DNA of 27,168 bases from a virus. The notes under the pieces are model-generated. The model ran no database searches. It was given only the letters and a program-made list of their open reading frames with translations, and was not told the origin of the DNA. This document shows, piece after piece, positions 1 through 27,131 of the stretch. A program made the translations under genes and the position numbers. The stretch spans positions 1-27,168 of the IMG/VR virus record IMGVR_UViG_3300025080_000001; one strand, given 5' to 3'. Numbering within the stretch: position 1 is the stretch's first letter; every line of letters starts with the position of its first letter.

Positions 1-2351
1 GGCATAGCGGCGGGCGCAGCAGCCTGGGCGGACATAGCGGCGGGCATAGCGGCGGGCATAGCGGCGGGCATAGCGGCGGGCACCCGAACAGCGAAACCCC
101 CAGGTACTTCGACGGCTTCCCCGCCTTCAAAAGTTGCACGCTCTCGCGCAGCCCAAACTGTCTTGAACGGCCTGCCATTTTTGGCCATCACCAAAGGCGC
201 GGGCACGTGCGTAGCGGCGGGCATAGCGGCGGGCACGGGCGTAGCGGCAGGGGCAGGGGTTGCTCCGAGTACAAACCCGCTGACGGCCTGCTGCGCTGTC
301 GCCAGCTCCGTCCGCTTGCGGTCAATCACCGCTCGGCGCGTCGCATACTCTTGCGGGGAAAGCAGGTCTGAACCATCAGAAACTTTGCGGTCGAGGGTAG
401 CCAAGCTCTTATCGAGCGCCGCAGTTTGCTGCTGGAAATACTGCTCCAGCCGCAGGTTAATTGGCTCCGCCACTGCGGCGTCAGTGGGCTGCGGCACAAC
501 GAGGGCCGCCAAGTCAAGCGACAGCTTGGTGCCGTAGCTGTCCACCCGTGCGCCGCCCCGGCCCAGCGCAGCCCGTATCTGTTCACCTACAGCCCCGCGA
601 GTAGGCCCTGGGCGGGGTGTTCTAGGCGCGCTTGCGTCGTAAGTATTCCCGAACAGGTCGGGCTGCCCATCAACCCGTTGGGCTTCTATGGCGGACGCCT
701 GGCGTTCGAGGGTCGCTACCTGTTCCTGGAGCCCGTGCGCCAGCGGCGTCAGCTCGTAGAACCGGCGCCAGTCGCCAGCCTCTTGCGCACTCGCAAGCCC
801 AGACTGCACCTGCGCCAGTTGGCGCTGCGCCTCACGATACCGCCCCAAGATCGCCGCGTCATCCGCGCCCGGCACCGGGTCGGCAGGTAGCTCGGACATG
901 CGCCCGTAGTCCCCTAGGTCACCGAACAAGTCCACGCCAGGCGTGATGATCCCGGGTGCAGCCGGTGTGCGCGGGGCAAAAGGGTCGGGCGTAGCAGCGC
1001 GCCTTTGCGCGTTTTGCGCCGCCATCTGCTGCTGTATGAGAGCCAGACGCACCCGCAAAGCCTCTGCCTCTGCGGCCATCCGCTGAAACCCGGGAGTGCT
1101 TTCCGCGCCCCGCTCCATCACCATCGCAGTTTCCAGGCCCGCCAGGCGCTGGCGCAACTCTCGGTACTGCGCTGGCGCAAGGCCCTCTACAGGGGCAACC
1201 GGCTGCAAAGATTCCTCTACCGCAGCGGCATCTGCTGGTGCCACTACCGGCGCGGCCATTGCGTCGTCTGCGGGCGGCTCTGGCACTCGCGGCTGCAAGA
1301 TGTCCACCGGATCCGTACCTATTGGGGCCGCCGGAGGCGCGGGCAGCGGAGTGTCGCCCGACGCGGGTGTAGGGTCGTTCAAGTGGGCGAGGCGCTGGCC
1401 GCTGGGGATGCCGCCGAGAGTCCCGTAGGTTCCACCGACAAGCGCGCCCAGCGCCAGCGCGTTGATGCGCCGGTCGGCCACTTCTTCAGGGGACAAACCC
1501 CCGGCGTGCATCGCCATTTCCAGCTCGTTCTGGAAACCTTCAGTGAGCCCTTCCCCACCAGCCGCCACTGTCCCGGCCGTGAGCGTCCGGCGCAGCAGCC
1601 CGCCAGTGTACGCGGCCCCAGGAACGCGAAACGGGGCCTGTAGTGCCGACGGTATTGCCGCGTTAGCAAAGCCGTGCAGGGGGGCCAACAGGGCGGCCCG
1701 GTAGGGGTCGGGCGCCCCTGCGTTGACCGACTCCTGGTACAGCGAGCCGAAGCCCATGCCGGTACCTACCATCGTAGCCGTAGCCAGCGCACGTCCTTGG
1801 TTCATCGCCGCTTGGCGGACGGCTTCCGTGGCCCCGGCGCGCAGGCCCGCACCACCAACAAAGGTAGGCGCCGCAGCGGCTAGCCGGGTCAACCCCGTAG
1901 CGGCTGCGGCCTTCCCCAGACCGGGGACGAACTGCGCACCAACCATCGCCGCAACAGTCGGGGCGTTGACTAGCGCCTGGTACGCCACAAACGACGGCGC
2001 ATTGTCCCAGCTCAAGTCCTGAATGCGCGACAGCTCGGGGCGCCCGCTCAGCGCCGCTTCCGCCTGGTTCCTCGCTGCACCCCGGTTGGCCCAGTCTTGG
2101 GTGCGCTCCCTGCCAAGCGCATCGGCGGCCCCGGCTACGGCGCTGTAGCCTATGCTCTGGAGCTGGTTCAACCCCGTCGAAAGCCCGGAACGCAGAATCC
2201 CCCGGTCGCGCCCAGACTGCACACCGAACGCCGTGGCCACGTCTTGCATCGGCATCTGCGCCCGCGAAGAAATCTCCTGTATCAGTTCGGCGTCGCCTAT
2301 CTGGGCAGCCCAAGGGTGCCGCTGGCGGAATGTGTCGAGGGTTACGGCCAT
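1..2351 (-). CDS. Large internal-virion / DNA-ejection-type protein (partial, runs off left edge)
   Basis: An uninterrupted minus-strand frame runs from an ATG at 2351 to the window edge, giving 783 complete codons without a stop; the C-terminus is missing. The start follows an AGGAG ribosome binding site about 8 bases upstream and lies just after the preceding late gene. The N-terminal ~110 residues are polar and helical. Residues ~120-200 are Ala/Gly-rich and hydrophobic, as in podovirus proteins ejected through the envelope. A Pro/Ala-rich linker and coiled-coil-like stretches with many Glu, Arg and Gln follow. Near residue ~722 is the segment MAKNGRPFKTVWAARERA, which resembles short modules seen in large phage polyvalent or internal proteins. 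The visible end is low complexity, with PAAM repeats. No transglycosylase motif is visible; such a domain could lie beyond the edge. The role is inferred from position as the last of three ejection-type genes. Confidence 0.72.
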   Translation of the reverse strand, partial: MAVTLDTFRQRHPWAAQIGDAELIQEISSRAQMPMQDVATAFGVQSGRDRGILRSGLSTGLNQLQSIGYSAVAGAADALGRERTQDWANRGAARNQAEAALSGRPELSRIQDLSWDNAPSFVAYQALVNAPTVAAMVGAQFVPGLGKAAAATGLTRLAAAAPTFVGGAGLRAGATEAVRQAAMNQGRALATATMVGTGMGFGSLYQESVNAGAPDPYRAALLAPLHGFANAAIPSALQAPFRVPGAAYTGGLLRRTLTAGTVAAGGEGLTEGFQNELEMAMHAGGLSPEEVADRRINALALGALVGGTYGTLGGIPSGQRLAHLNDPTPASGDTPLPAPPAAPIGTDPVDILQPRVPEPPADDAMAAPVVAPADAAAVEESLQPVAPVEGLAPAQYRELRQRLAGLETAMVMERGAESTPGFQRMAAEAEALRVRLALIQQQMAAQNAQRRAATPDPFAPRTPAAPGIITPGVDLFGDLGDYGRMSELPADPVPGADDAAILGRYREAQRQLAQVQSGLASAQEAGDWRRFYELTPLAHGLQEQVATLERQASAIEAQRVDGQPDLFGNTYDASAPRTPRPGPTRGAVGEQIRAALGRGGARVDSYGTKLSLDLAALVVPQPTDAAVAEPINLRLEQYFQQQTAALDKSLATLDRKVSDGSDLLSPQEYATRRAVIDRKRTELATAQQAVSGFVLGATPAPAATPVPAAMPAATHVPAPLVMAKNGRPFKTVWAARERATFEGGEAVEVPGGFAVRVPAAMPAAMPAAMPAAMSAQAAAPAAM
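3..80. repeat. 12-bp tandem repeat encoding PAAM
   Basis: Four perfect copies of CATAGCGGCGGG lie at 33-80 and one separate copy at 3-14. In the minus-strand reading frame each encodes Pro-Ala-Ala-Met. The period is a multiple of three, so copy number can change without breaking the frame. A related block lies at 210-233. Confidence 0.85.
210..233. repeat. Second short block of the same 12-bp PAAM-type repeat
   Basis: Two tandem 12-bp units, one with CGT instead of CAT at its start (giving PAAT instead of PAAM), are followed by degenerate Pro/Ala/Val codons. The block sits ~130 bp from the larger block in the same gene, which suggests local duplication and drift. Confidence 0.6.
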
Positions 2352-3909: not shown

Positions 3910-5066
3910 GCGGTTTCTCCCTGTACCGGCGACATTTCAATGCCCAAAGCGCGGTAATCCACCAACTTATACCCCAAGGCATCTTCGTACACCGCGTCAG
4001 GGCGCAGCGCCTCAACCTCGTCAGCCATGACCCCGCGATAGCGCGCCGCGCCAGTGCGGTAGCGAAACTCGTACAAGTTCAAGCCCGTTGTTTCATCTAC
4101 GCCTACCTGCACGATGTCCGCCTTCAGTCGGCGGTCAGACCACCCCGCACCAATCGCGGACGCACCCAACTGCGCCCCGGCGCCCAGCAGCGCCGCGAAC
4201 GGGTTGTTGGCGTTATTGGTTCTCGTGGCGTTCTGCTGCAATTCGTTGAACCGCCCCAAGTTGCCAATGCCCGCGTTCATGCCGTTCATCGTGGCGCCGA
4301 AGGTGTTGTTGTTCGCGCCCACTGTCGCAGTTCCGGCGTTCATCATGGAGCCGCCCGCGTTCAGGCCAGTGCCCATGAAGTTTCCAGCCAGCCCCGCACT
4401 GGTTGCGCCTAGGCCCGCCATGCCCAGCCGGGCTCCCACCCCTTGGAACCTGTTGGCCAGCCCCGCCTGCTCTGCGGCCATGCGGGTCTTGTTGGCGGCC
4501 CCGGCCATTGCTTGGGCCTGCTGGATCGTCATCGCGTTTTCTTGCGCAGCAAACGCGCCCGACGCCGGGTTGACGCCCATGCGAGCCATAGCCCGCAAGC
4601 CTTGCCCGCGTGCGTTGGAAGTCGCCGCGCCTACGTCTGCCAGCGAGCGGTCCACTTGGCGCTGGATACCCGCCGGGTTGAACATCTGCTCAACGTCGGC
4701 GTCCAGTCGATCTTGCATGGGCACGGTGCTGCCCCAGAACCGATTATCCTGGCGGCGCATCTGCGCTAGCTGGTAATCGCTCGTGGCGTTGGCGCGGTCA
4801 GCGGTCTCCCGCCCGATACCGATGGCCTCATTGGCAACGCCGCGTATCCACTCGCGTTCACCGCCTTCGGCAGTGTAGTCCGCCCACTGGCGTTCGGCCA
4901 ATTCAATCTGGCGTATCGCCGCTGCACCCATTTGTGGGTCGGGTGGCGGTGCCCGCCCGCCGCCGCCTTCGAGCGTCATGCCCGCAGAGAATTTCCCCCG
5001 CCCGCCGCGAGCGGTGAAAGCCCGCTCTGGGAGCCGGTCGAATTCGGTTGTGTGCCACCTAGACAT
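3906..5066 (-). CDS. Virion protein with C-terminal S74-type intramolecular chaperone domain
   Basis: This is a 386-residue protein. Residues 1-110 are polar. Residues ~110-300 are an Ala/Gly/Asn/Met-rich helical region, and residues ~309-386 carry a Peptidase_S74-like domain. That domain opens with WSDRRLKADI, where Ser310 followed by Asp, Arg and Lys matches the self-cleavage motif of endosialidase-type chaperones. It continues with YEFRYR, RGVMADEVEALRPDAV and YKLVDYRALG, all typical of the family. Such domains usually cap trimeric tail fibres or spikes and are released by autoproteolysis. Here the carrier looks like a helical internal or tail-tube-associated protein, not a beta-helix. The gene overlaps the upstream acetyltransferase by 8 bp and the next gene by ATGA. 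GAGGA lies ~8 bases before the start. Confidence 0.78.
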   Translation of the reverse strand: MSRWHTTEFDRLPERAFTARGGRGKFSAGMTLEGGGGRAPPPDPQMGAAAIRQIELAERQWADYTAEGGEREWIRGVANEAIGIGRETADRANATSDYQLAQMRRQDNRFWGSTVPMQDRLDADVEQMFNPAGIQRQVDRSLADVGAATSNARGQGLRAMARMGVNPASGAFAAQENAMTIQQAQAMAGAANKTRMAAEQAGLANRFQGVGARLGMAGLGATSAGLAGNFMGTGLNAGGSMMNAGTATVGANNNTFGATMNGMNAGIGNLGRFNELQQNATRTNNANNPFAALLGAGAQLGASAIGAGWSDRRLKADIVQVGVDETTGLNLYEFRYRTGAARYRGVMADEVEALRPDAVYEDALGYKLVDYRALGIEMSPVQGETA

Positions 5067-5469
5067 AACGGCAATCCTCTCGACGCATCACGTACAAAAT
5101 CACAGCCCCGCCGTCCGACGCCGCCCCGTGCAGCACCGCTTCTTGGCGGAACCCCAAGTGTTCAGTTAGTTGTCGGGAAGCCGTGTTGCTGGCCTCCACA
5201 CTCCCGCTGATCCTGCGGCACCCTAGCTCAACAAACGGGTAGTAAAACCCGTAGCGCAGGAACTCCCTGCAAACCATTCGGCGGCCCGGCGCTAGCGCGA
5301 TATGCGCCCATATGTTTACGCCGTTCCATTTTTCGTACAGCACCCCCGCCGTCAACTCGCCATCTTGCTCCAGCCCCAGCCCTTTCATGTGCTGCGCAAA
5401 GGGCACCGGCGTGAAGTTCCAAACGAACTCCCACACGCGCACCGGGTCGGAGACAATTCTGCGGGTCAT
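5059..5469 (-). CDS. GNAT-family N-acetyltransferase-like protein
   Basis: This 136-residue protein has the C-terminal half of a RimJ/Acetyltransf_3-type GNAT fold. The stretch RRISGSVEASNTASRQLTEH followed by LGFRQEAVLHG corresponds to the strand, the Asn-containing loop and helix, and the LGF motif that build the acetyl-CoA side of these enzymes. The substrate is unknown. GNAT genes occur among late genes of several podoviruses, where they may modify a host or virion protein. The gene overlaps the next gene by 8 bp. Its start lies directly at the edge of the inserted tnpB element and has only a weak GGA ~8 bases upstream, so its original leader may have been displaced. The ATG at 5469 is the only good start that keeps the full fold. 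Confidence 0.7.
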   Translation of the reverse strand: MTRRIVSDPVRVWEFVWNFTPVPFAQHMKGLGLEQDGELTAGVLYEKWNGVNIWAHIALAPGRRMVCREFLRYGFYYPFVELGCRRISGSVEASNTASRQLTEHLGFRQEAVLHGAASDGGAVILYVMRREDCRYV

Positions 5470-5487
5470 CGATTTTCCAGCGAGATA

Positions 5488-5508
5488 CCCCCGCCTTTAG
5501 GCGTGGGG
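5488..5508 (+). repeat. Left-end hairpin of the tnpB element
   Basis: CCCC pairs with GGGG outside a bulged T5504, and CGCC pairs with GGCG around a TTTA loop. It has the same design and orientation as the right-end hairpin at 6677-6697. Subterminal hairpins of this kind are recognised by TnpA in IS200/IS605 elements. Confidence 0.8.
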
Positions 5509-5519
5509 AGGGATAGCGG

Positions 5520-5542
5520 GCAGCCCGAAGGGCTGCTTTCTT
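5520..5542 (+). terminator. Perfect hairpin plus T-rich tail ahead of the tnpB promoter
   Basis: GCAGCCC and GGGCTGC form a perfect 7-bp stem around GAA (5520-5536), followed by TTTCTT. Read on the plus strand it resembles a weak intrinsic terminator, which would shield tnpB from outside transcription. The tail is imperfect, so the call is tentative. Confidence 0.45.
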
Positions 5543-5547
5543 GCCGC

Positions 5548-5576
5548 TTGACAAGCATACACGAAAACTCCATAAT
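5548..5576 (+). promoter_or_regulatory. Sigma70-type promoter of tnpB
   Basis: TTGACA at 5548-5553 and CATAAT at 5571-5576 are separated by exactly 17 bases. The predicted start site falls about 7 bases after the -10 box, essentially on the ATG at 5583, so the transcript could be leaderless. Confidence 0.7.
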
Positions 5577-5582
5577 GGAAGC

Positions 5583-6689
5583 ATGAAATTGGTTGCTAAC
5601 ATCAGATTGAAGCCGACGAAAGAGCAGGAGGTTGAGCTGCGCGCCACGCTTGAGCGCTGCAACGAGGCTTGCAACTGGTTGTCGCAGCAAGGTTTCGCAG
5701 CGAAAACGACACGTCAATTTGACATGCACAAAGCGTTCTATCGCGAACTGCGCGAACGCTTTGAGTTGACGGCGCAAGTGGCGGTTCGCTGCATCGCGAA
5801 AGTTGCCGATGCCTACAAGATCGACCAGAAAACGCAGCGCGTTTTTCGCAAACATGCTGCGCAGCCCTACGACGACCGAATCCTGTCGTTCAAGCCCAAC
5901 GACATCGTATCGCTGTGGGTGCTGTCCGGCCGCGCCAAGATCGCCCACGTCTGCGGCGACCACCAGCGCAAGCTGCTCGCGCATCGCAAAGGAGAAGTTG
6001 ATCTGATGCTCGTTCGCGGCAAGTGGTACTTGGCGGCCGTGTGCGACTTCGACGAACCTGACCTGCTCACGCCGGACGGCATGCTTGGTGTGGACTTCGG
6101 TATCGTGAACATAGCCACCGACAGCCTCGGCAAACAGCATTCCGGCGCTGCCGTCGAGGCATACCGCGAACGCTACGCCAGACGACGCGCGCTCTTGCAA
6201 CGTGTCGGCACTCGCGCCGCGAAGAAGCGACTGCGCAAGATGGGCGGCAAGCAACGGCGATTCCACAAACACGAGAACCATTGCATTTCGAAAAGCATCG
6301 TTTCCACTGCTGAACGCGCCGAACTCGGCATTGTGCTTGAAGACCTCACGCACATCCGGGCACGGGCCAAGGCCAACAAAGAGCAGAGGAAACGCTTGCA
6401 CAACTGGTCCTTCGGGCAGCTTCGCGCCTTTATCGAATACAAGGCCAAGCAAGCTGGGGTTCCGTGCGTTTCTATCGATCCACGCTACACGAGCCAGGAG
6501 TGCGGCGAGTGTGGGCACATCGACAAGCGCAACCGGAAAAGCCAGTCCGAGTTTCGGTGTAAGTCCTGCGGACACGAATCCAACGCAGACTTGAACGCCG
6601 CCAGCACCATTGCTGGGAGGGTCGCAGTAAACCGGCCTATGTTCGCGCATCTGTGTGTCCCAGGTGTAGTGGAAAGCCCCCGGCTTTAG
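5583..6689 (+). CDS. tnpB: TnpB, RNA-guided nuclease of IS200/IS605 type
   Basis: This 368-residue protein begins MKLVANIRLKPTKEQ, the usual TnpB N-terminus, which favours ATG 5583 over upstream starts. The RuvC-like triad appears intact: D171 in GVDFGIVNIATD, E253 in GIVLEDLTHIR, and D336 in NADLNAAS. A zinc finger with C307/C310 and C326/C329 lies between the second and third motifs. The length is within the usual 350-420 range. TnpB proteins are guided by an RNA from the element's right end and cut DNA next to a short adjacent motif. The stop codon TAG lies inside the right-end hairpin, as is common in this family. The gene is transcribed against the phage late genes and has its own promoter. 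No frameshift or missing key residue is visible, so it looks functional. Confidence 0.93.
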   Translation: MKLVANIRLKPTKEQEVELRATLERCNEACNWLSQQGFAAKTTRQFDMHKAFYRELRERFELTAQVAVRCIAKVADAYKIDQKTQRVFRKHAAQPYDDRILSFKPNDIVSLWVLSGRAKIAHVCGDHQRKLLAHRKGEVDLMLVRGKWYLAAVCDFDEPDLLTPDGMLGVDFGIVNIATDSLGKQHSGAAVEAYRERYARRRALLQRVGTRAAKKRLRKMGGKQRRFHKHENHCISKSIVSTAERAELGIVLEDLTHIRARAKANKEQRKRLHNWSFGQLRAFIEYKAKQAGVPCVSIDPRYTSQECGECGHIDKRNRKSQSEFRCKSCGHESNADLNAASTIAGRVAVNRPMFAHLCVPGVVESPRL

Positions 6690-6720
6690 CCGTGGGGTCG
6701 TTTACTCATCGCCTAGCAAA
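6560..6720 (+). ncRNA. Candidate omega RNA (reRNA) with guide, approximate bounds
   Basis: In characterised TnpB systems the guide RNA scaffold overlaps the 3' end of tnpB and the right-end hairpin, and the guide is the sequence just beyond the element. Here the scaffold would end near 6697-6705. The guide would be the following ~16-20 bases, which are the tail of the flanking phage gene. The bounds are inferred from family architecture; I see no independent RNA signal beyond the hairpin. Confidence 0.45.
6677..6697 (+). repeat. Right-end hairpin of the tnpB element
   Basis: CCCC pairs with GGGG outside a bulged T6693, and CGGC pairs with GCCG around a TTTA loop. The TAG stop of tnpB (6687-6689) sits in this hairpin. 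It matches the left-end hairpin except for one compensating base-pair swap. Confidence 0.82.
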
Positions 6721-7031
6721 TCGTGAACGTCAGGGTTCTGCACGGGTCGGGGCTTGGCCGCAATGACTTCGGGTTCCGGCGCGGCCACAACAACTTCGGG
6801 CTCCGGCTCGGGCCGGGGGCGGCGCGGTCTTAGACGCACTTCGGTCTTGACTACAGCGTCCTCGATGTCTTGCGCCAACAACGCCGAGCCTTCGTCGGTT
6901 GGTATGAACACGCCGTTGCGCACGCTGCCGAGAACCTTGTTCTTCCACATGATGTCGCCTGCTACCGAGTGGGCGCCGAGGGCGATGAGTTTGTCCGCGT
7001 CGTTCACGAGGGTTCCTTGAAGGTTTTGCAT
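6702..7031 (-). CDS. Hypothetical late protein with acidic Pro-Glu-rich tail
   Basis: This 109-residue protein is not recognised. Residues 1-60 look folded (MQNLQGTLVNDADKLIALGA and onward). Residues ~65-100 are a charged low-complexity linker with Arg-Pro then Glu-Pro repeats (PEPEPEVVVAAPEPEV), followed by an acidic end, DLLGDE. Its TAA stop lies at the right boundary of the tnpB element, so the final codon or stop may have been altered by the insertion. No Shine-Dalgarno precedes the ATG. Instead CATAAT lies 5 bases upstream with a poor -35 (TAGATT) at 17 bp spacing. It follows the tail-chaperone-like gene after a 31-base gap and may be a small tail or virion accessory protein. Confidence 0.6.
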   Translation of the reverse strand: MQNLQGTLVNDADKLIALGAHSVAGDIMWKNKVLGSVRNGVFIPTDEGSALLAQDIEDAVVKTEVRLRPRRPRPEPEPEVVVAAPEPEVIAAKPRPVQNPDVHDLLGDE

Positions 7032-26950: not shown

Positions 26951-27131
26951 CGGCCCGGTCAGCTTGTTGCGGCCCGGTCAGCCTGTTGTGGCCCGGTCAG
27001 CTTGTTGCGGCCCGGTCAGCTTGTTGCGGCCCGGTCAGCTTGTTGTGGCCCGGTCAGCGTGTTGCGGCCCGGTCAGCTTGTTGCGGCCCGGTCAGCTTGT
27101 TGCGGCCCGGTCAGCTTGTTGCGGCCCGGTG
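26951..27131. repeat. 19-bp tandem repeat array, nine units plus a partial tenth
   Basis: The unit is CGGCCCGGTCAGCTTGTTG. Units start at 26951, 26970, 26989, 27008, 27027, 27046, 27065, 27084 and 27103, and a partial copy begins at 27122. They are nearly identical. Changes are C to T at the first base in units 3 and 6, and T to C or G at one base in units 2 and 6. The period is not a multiple of three, so this is probably not coding. Its position upstream of the terminase genes suggests a packaging (pac/cos-type) or replication site. Confidence 0.9.

What the first reader, a model, noticed from the sequence alone, without database searches (positions are those of the whole stretch)
5470..6705. 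Intact solo tnpB inserted antisense in a phage late operon
All RuvC and zinc-finger residues are present, the element has its own promoter, and both end hairpins remain with a compensating base-pair change. There is no tnpA. By known TnpB biology the guide would be the phage sequence beyond 6697-6705, so the nuclease would target the same site in co-infecting relatives lacking the element. It could thus act as a homing or phage-competition device.
Basis: partly seen in the sequence, partly recalled or inferred. Interest (0 to 1): 0.68.

Follow-up and report, generated by a model that had tools for sequence, protein, structure and literature searches.

The report
Phage tnpB inserted at start codon
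A small "jumping" gene for an RNA-guided DNA cutter (TnpB) sits between two genes of a phage, exactly at the start codon of the second one and without changing either protein, and its relatives show a repeated habit of landing on start codons with a ribosome-binding-like sequence at their edge.

Summary
Window 5470-6705 (1236 bp) is a tnpB-only IS200/IS605-type element, antisense in the tail/late operon of an environmental phage fragment. TnpB (5583-6689) has all RuvC and zinc residues, a strong consensus promoter (probably leaderless) and both hairpin ends; no tnpA is in the record. Joining the flanks recreates a 4-base ATGA stop/start overlap, the arrangement found in relatives lacking the element (ATGA in L004, GTGA in L011). 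The element follows GTCAT, the antisense of the GNAT start codon; its right tip supplies a new in-frame stop, so both proteins are unchanged. The guide would begin at 6706. The homing reading is sound in principle (shown elsewhere for plasmids), but no collected relative carries a matching target, so phage competition is unproven. Relatives show a wider pattern: TCAT insertions sit at start codons in 13 of 22 cellular and 14 of 26 independent viral elements (null 10-16%; 20-29% for tolerated sites), and left tips are Shine-Dalgarno-like at start-codon spacing (mean -4.9 versus -2.4 kcal/mol shuffled). This looks like translation-neutral insertion, which I have not seen described.

The parts
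5470..6705 (+). whole tnpB-only IS200/IS605-type element, 1236 bp
   Evidence: end comparison with more than 60 relatives and rejoined flanks
5465..5469 (+). target-adjacent motif GTCAT (TCAT core), antisense of GNAT start ATGAC
   Evidence: TCAT/TCAC precedes the left end throughout the family at a fixed distance of about 18-19 nt from the hairpin
5470..5487 (+). left tip; read outward it is TGGAAAATCG directly before the GNAT ATG, a weak Shine-Dalgarno-like match
   Evidence: duplex -3.3 kcal/mol in the window (32% of shuffles as good); stronger in many relatives
5488..5508 (+). left-end hairpin CCCCCGCCTTTAGGCGTGGGG, bulged T
5520..5536 (+). second left hairpin GCAGCCCGAAGGGCTGC
   Evidence: sequence; similar second hairpins at this place in L025 and L031
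5548..5576 (+). sigma70-like promoter TTGACA-17-CATAAT, 6 nt before the ATG (leaderless mRNA expected)
   Evidence: same layout in L002, L003, L025 and many viral relatives
5583..6689 (+). tnpB, 368 aa, intact RNA-guided nuclease
6677..6697 (+). right-end hairpin CCCCCGGCTTTAGCCGTGGGG, bulged T; expected 3' part of the guide-RNA scaffold
6698..6705 (+). right tip TCGTTTAC; its reverse complement gives the stop codon TAA (6702-6704) of the 109-aa gene
6706..6725 (+). predicted guide TCATCGCCTAGCAAATCGTG (first about 16-20 nt used)
   Evidence: position by analogy with ISDra2 reRNA (PMC8612924); not observed as RNA
5059..5469 (-). GNAT acyltransferase gene whose start codon is the target motif
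   Evidence: full-length relatives begin at the same residue
6702..7031 (-). 109-aa gene upstream in the operon; ends DE-stop with or without the element

Best explanation
A tnpB-only IS200/IS605-family element (IS1341-like) landed antisense in a phage late operon. It inserted 3' of GTCAT, the complement of the ATGA shared by the stop of the 109-aa gene and the start of the GNAT gene. The right tip gives the upstream gene a new stop in the same place; the left tip sits where the GNAT ribosome-binding site would be, so coding is unharmed (shown from sequence). TnpB is transcribed from its own promoter, and the transcript would run through the right-end hairpin into phage DNA, giving a guide RNA for 6706 onward (inferred). 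The complex would cut DNA with GTCAT next to that guide, i.e. the same junction without the element, and repair would copy the element in: retention after excision, or drive into a near-identical co-infecting phage (inferred). The element's own copy is safe because TTTAC, not GTCAT, precedes the guide. Movement would need a TnpA from elsewhere.
For: Intact TnpB with active site; fold and profile matches to Cas12f and TnpB nucleases (model pLDDT 85, pTM 0.51); promoter; covarying end hairpins; rejoined flanks give a 4-base ATGA overlap as in L004 and comparable to the GTGA overlap of L011; motif TCAT/TCAC fixed by multicopy subfamilies in one genome; no tnpA in the record but tnpA present in four relatives' genomes; cutting of the empty site known for ISDra2 (PMC8612924) and plasmid drive (PMC11870625).
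Against: No RNA, cleavage or transposition data. No close relative with a matching empty target is held. Closest TnpB is 71% identical (L168), so nothing shows recent movement of this copy. Rfam has no match. The late operon would make antisense RNA across tnpB, which could keep it low late in infection.
Confidence: 0.75

Rival explanations
1. Immobile passenger: the element arrived by TnpA supplied in trans, is intact only because the insertion is recent or harmless, and TnpB has no present role in phage fitness.
For: No tnpA in the record; some relatives carry stops in tnpB (L113; L163); no matching target in any known relative.
Against: All catalytic and zinc residues, the promoter and both hairpins are intact in the window; long matches are common among 80 viral relatives.
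Confidence: 0.3
2. Domesticated TldR-like repressor: a TnpB that binds its guided site and blocks a gene without cutting.
For: The guide would cover sequence just upstream of a start codon, where binding could block expression.
Against: RuvC D171, E253 and D336 are all present, whereas TldRs have lost them (own knowledge); the only perfect target has the element in it.
Confidence: 0.04
3. Start-codon placement in the family is only survivorship: insertions inside genes are lost, and TCAT happens to be common at gene edges.
For: TCAC insertions are not enriched at starts (2 of 19).
Against: Enrichment remains against TCAT sites outside ORF interiors: cellular 13 of 22 against 20%, viral 14 of 26 against 29%, p=0.006; left tips are Shine-Dalgarno-like at the right distance.
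Confidence: 0.35

Closest known systems
ISDra2 (IS200/IS605 family) TnpB
   Same: TnpB with RuvC triad, right-end RNA with guide from the flank, motif on the left side only, subterminal hairpins
   Different: ISDra2 carries tnpA and uses TTGAT; this element has no tnpA and uses GTCAT, a start-codon complement; sequence only distantly alike
IS1341-type solo tnpB elements
   Same: tnpB alone between two hairpin ends
   Different: here in a phage late operon, exactly at a stop/start overlap
IS200/605 gene drive in plasmids (PMC11870625)
   Same: same logic: cut copies lacking the element
   Different: shown for plasmids; here only inferred for a phage
AsCas12f1 (Cas12f)
   Same: best PDB fold hits and among the best sequence hits
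   Different: CRISPR effector with separate guide array; no array here

Membership tests
IS200/IS605 family, tnpB-only (IS1341-like) | TnpB/OrfB protein | tested here: met
   NF040570 179.8 bits, cut-off 100; PF07282 over cut-off
IS200/IS605 family, tnpB-only (IS1341-like) | subterminal imperfect hairpins at both ends, no terminal inverted repeats | tested here: met
   5488-5508 and 6677-6697, covarying across relatives
IS200/IS605 family, tnpB-only (IS1341-like) | insertion 3' of a short fixed motif, no target duplication | tested here: met
   TCAT/TCAC rule in relatives; rejoined flanks restore the gene overlap with no bases left over
IS200/IS605 family, tnpB-only (IS1341-like) | mobilised by Y1 TnpA | not testable with these tools
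   no tnpA in the record; trans-acting TnpA possible
RNA-guided nuclease TnpB (OMEGA) | RuvC D/E/D and zinc cysteines | tested here: met
RNA-guided nuclease TnpB (OMEGA) | right-end RNA guides DNA cleavage | not testable with these tools
   needs RNA sequencing and cleavage assay; fold z-score -2.07 only
TldR (nuclease-dead TnpB repressor) | loss of RuvC catalytic residues | tested here: not met
   triad present
Phage homing / competition device | relatives with a matching, cuttable empty site | tested here: inconclusive
   empty-site relatives exist but are diverged at the target; near relatives may be missing from the collection

The most novel reading that the evidence does not exclude
A TnpB element lineage that uses the start codon as its target motif and carries, at its two tips, an outward ribosome-binding site and (in the TTAC-ended group) a stop codon, so that it can enter operons, including phage structural operons, without altering proteins, and then drives into copies lacking it.
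Probability: 0.45. Interest if true: 0.72.

Novelty: new variant of a known kind. Interest (0 to 1): 0.52.

Why it matters
It explains how a selfish cutter can sit in compact phage operons without cost, and gives a simple rule (TCAT = antisense ATGA) for predicting its targets. Because the guide then reads the sequence just upstream of a start codon, loss of the nuclease would at once give a repressor aimed at a gene's control region, a possible route to TldR-like regulators. It also makes RNA-guided drive in phages directly testable.

Tried and rejected
Rfam on 5300-6900: no match. Exact 17-base guide scan in viral contigs: two hits (L111, L112), neither preceded by the motif, about what chance gives. 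No near DNA match of the phage among known phages; the 109-aa protein finds no relative by pattern scan, though its homologues are visible next to GNAT genes. A left boundary nearer the hairpin was considered, because the left tip looks like a natural RBS; rejected because multicopy subfamilies and the fixed motif-hairpin distance put it at TCAT, and because rejoined flanks often bring back a good RBS. TCAC insertions are not enriched at starts, so the claim is limited to TCAT. Four further cellular TCAT copies were 2 of 4 at starts, too few to decide. A search of 299 genomes of the phylum of Paracraurococcus found no new copy. Searches failed on input errors and were repeated or dropped.

Full report
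What is there. The window is a 27,168-base IMG/VR virus record holding late genes of a short-tailed-phage-like genome on the minus strand: terminase, SU10-type portal, major head protein, endolysin, tail tip, tail assembly chaperone, a 109-aa gene, a GNAT acyltransferase and virion proteins. The GNAT gene has relatives in Bcep22-like and similar phages. On the plus strand between the 109-aa gene and the GNAT gene lies one tnpB.

The nuclease. The 368-aa product scores 179.8 bits for NCBIfam guided_TnpB (cut-off 100). D171, E253, D336 and the four zinc cysteines are conserved in 11- and 22-member alignments. The AlphaFold model (pLDDT 85, pTM 0.51) finds Cas12f and TnpB complexes (8dzj, 8j3r, 8iaz, 8h1j); whole-chain TM scores are only about 0.4, so the domain arrangement is not certain, but the sequence profile agrees. 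The promoter TTGACA-17-CATAAT ends 6 nt before the ATG; the same spacing recurs in relatives, so leaderless mRNA is likely.

The ends. Both ends have an 8-pair hairpin with TTTA loop and a bulged T (the hairpins were picked for pairing, so the covariation counts lean that way). Right ends of relatives share AAGC-hairpin-...T(T/G)AC, which puts the window's right end at 6705. On the left, the family is preceded by TCAT or TCAC at a fixed distance (about 18-19 nt) from the hairpin; one MAG with 27 copies has several subfamilies whose shared sequence stops exactly there. This gives GTCAT|CGATTTTCC, i.e. the element starts at 5470.

The empty site. Joining 5469 to 6706 gives, on the operon strand, GGCGATGA|ATGACCCGC: the 109-aa gene reads GAA TGA and the GNAT gene starts at the overlapping ATGA. 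Relatives without the element have the same two genes with a 4-base overlap in L004 (ATGA) and L011 (GTGA), TGATG in L005, L006 and L007, and short gaps in L010 and L012. With the element in place the 109-aa gene reads GAG TAA, the TAA coming from the right tip GTTTAC read backwards. So both proteins are exactly preserved, while translational coupling is broken and the sequence before the GNAT ATG is now the left tip, TGGAAAATCG.

Target and drive. By analogy with ISDra2 (PMC8612924), the guide is the first 16-20 nt after 6705. The empty junction has the motif GTCAT directly before it; the occupied site has TTTAC, so it should be spared. In plasmids, TnpB of this IS family has been shown to act as a gene drive by cutting element-free copies (PMC11870625). 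For this phage that step is inference: the best empty-site relative has 6 of 20 mismatches and a different motif, and the guide is absent elsewhere in the viral collection except for two chance hits.

A family habit. While fixing the ends I saw that TCAT is often the complement of a real start codon: TsaD, ketoacyl synthase, an RND pump, response regulators, an NTP transferase, a protein kinase and an SU10-type phage adaptor all begin right at the junction. Domain profiles for most of these start within the first 1-9 residues (for TsaD the profile starts at residue 25, but the rest is the usual TsaD N-terminus). Among cellular TCAT insertions, 13 of 22 are start-like against 10% of all TCAT sites in the same flanks and 20% of TCAT sites outside ORF interiors. 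That set suggested the idea, so I tested 80 viral relatives fetched afterwards. Of the 32 that an automatic rule resolved, 26 had TCAT; 14 of these are start-like against 15.7% of all and 28.7% of tolerated sites (p=8e-6 and 0.006). The other 46 loci were unresolved, mostly because the left end was not recognised. TCAC insertions show no enrichment.

Outward ribosome-binding site. Read outward, left tips of viral TCAT elements pair with anti-Shine-Dalgarno at -4.9 kcal/mol on average against -2.4 for shuffles (p=3e-4), with the optimum about 4 nt before the start codon; 16 of 26 beat 90% of shuffles. Examples: L175 CGGAGGAAACCT|ATG, L220 GGAGGGAAGTCG|ATG, L241 AGGAGATCTT|ATG. In the cellular set, TCAT tips average -4.2 against -2.3 shuffled, and TCAC tips -2.0 against -1.8. 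The window's own tip is weak (-3.3, 32% of shuffles as good). Part of this stretch could instead belong to an outer stem of the left end, so the RBS role needs a reporter test. The TTAC right tip, which restores a stop at ATGA overlaps, goes with 18 of 26 viral TCAT elements.

Verdict. The element is a member of a known kind. The start-codon landing with translation-neutral tips is, as far as the held literature shows, not described; subscription papers could not be checked.

Noticed in passing
window 26951-27130: 19-bp tandem repeat CGGCCCGGTCAGCTTGTTG, 9.5 copies at 95%, just upstream (5') of the 108-aa gene that precedes the terminase gene; could be a packaging or control site.
   Followed up: no
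window 27-82: 12-bp tandem repeat GGCGGGCATAGC, 4.7 copies at 97%.
   Followed up: no
G007 (genome of L063), contigs listed: One proteobacterial MAG with 27 tnpB copies of this lineage and 20 Y1 tnpA matches: a good natural system for mapping targets of different subfamilies.
   Followed up: partly
L051, L059, L062, L065, L081, L084, L090-L096 and similar actinobacterial loci: The actinobacterial sister group appears to use TTCAG before the left end instead of TCAT; some loci appear to carry a divergent tnpA upstream (read by eye from translated flank).
   Followed up: no
L055 and L060: Two copies in one genome share about 25 extra bases left of the assumed junction, up to the ATG of two different genes, including GGAGACC before the ATG; the boundary there may differ.
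   Followed up: partly
L195: A viral cousin inserted at the start codon of an SU10-type adaptor gene, so late structural genes of phages are hit more than once.
   Followed up: partly
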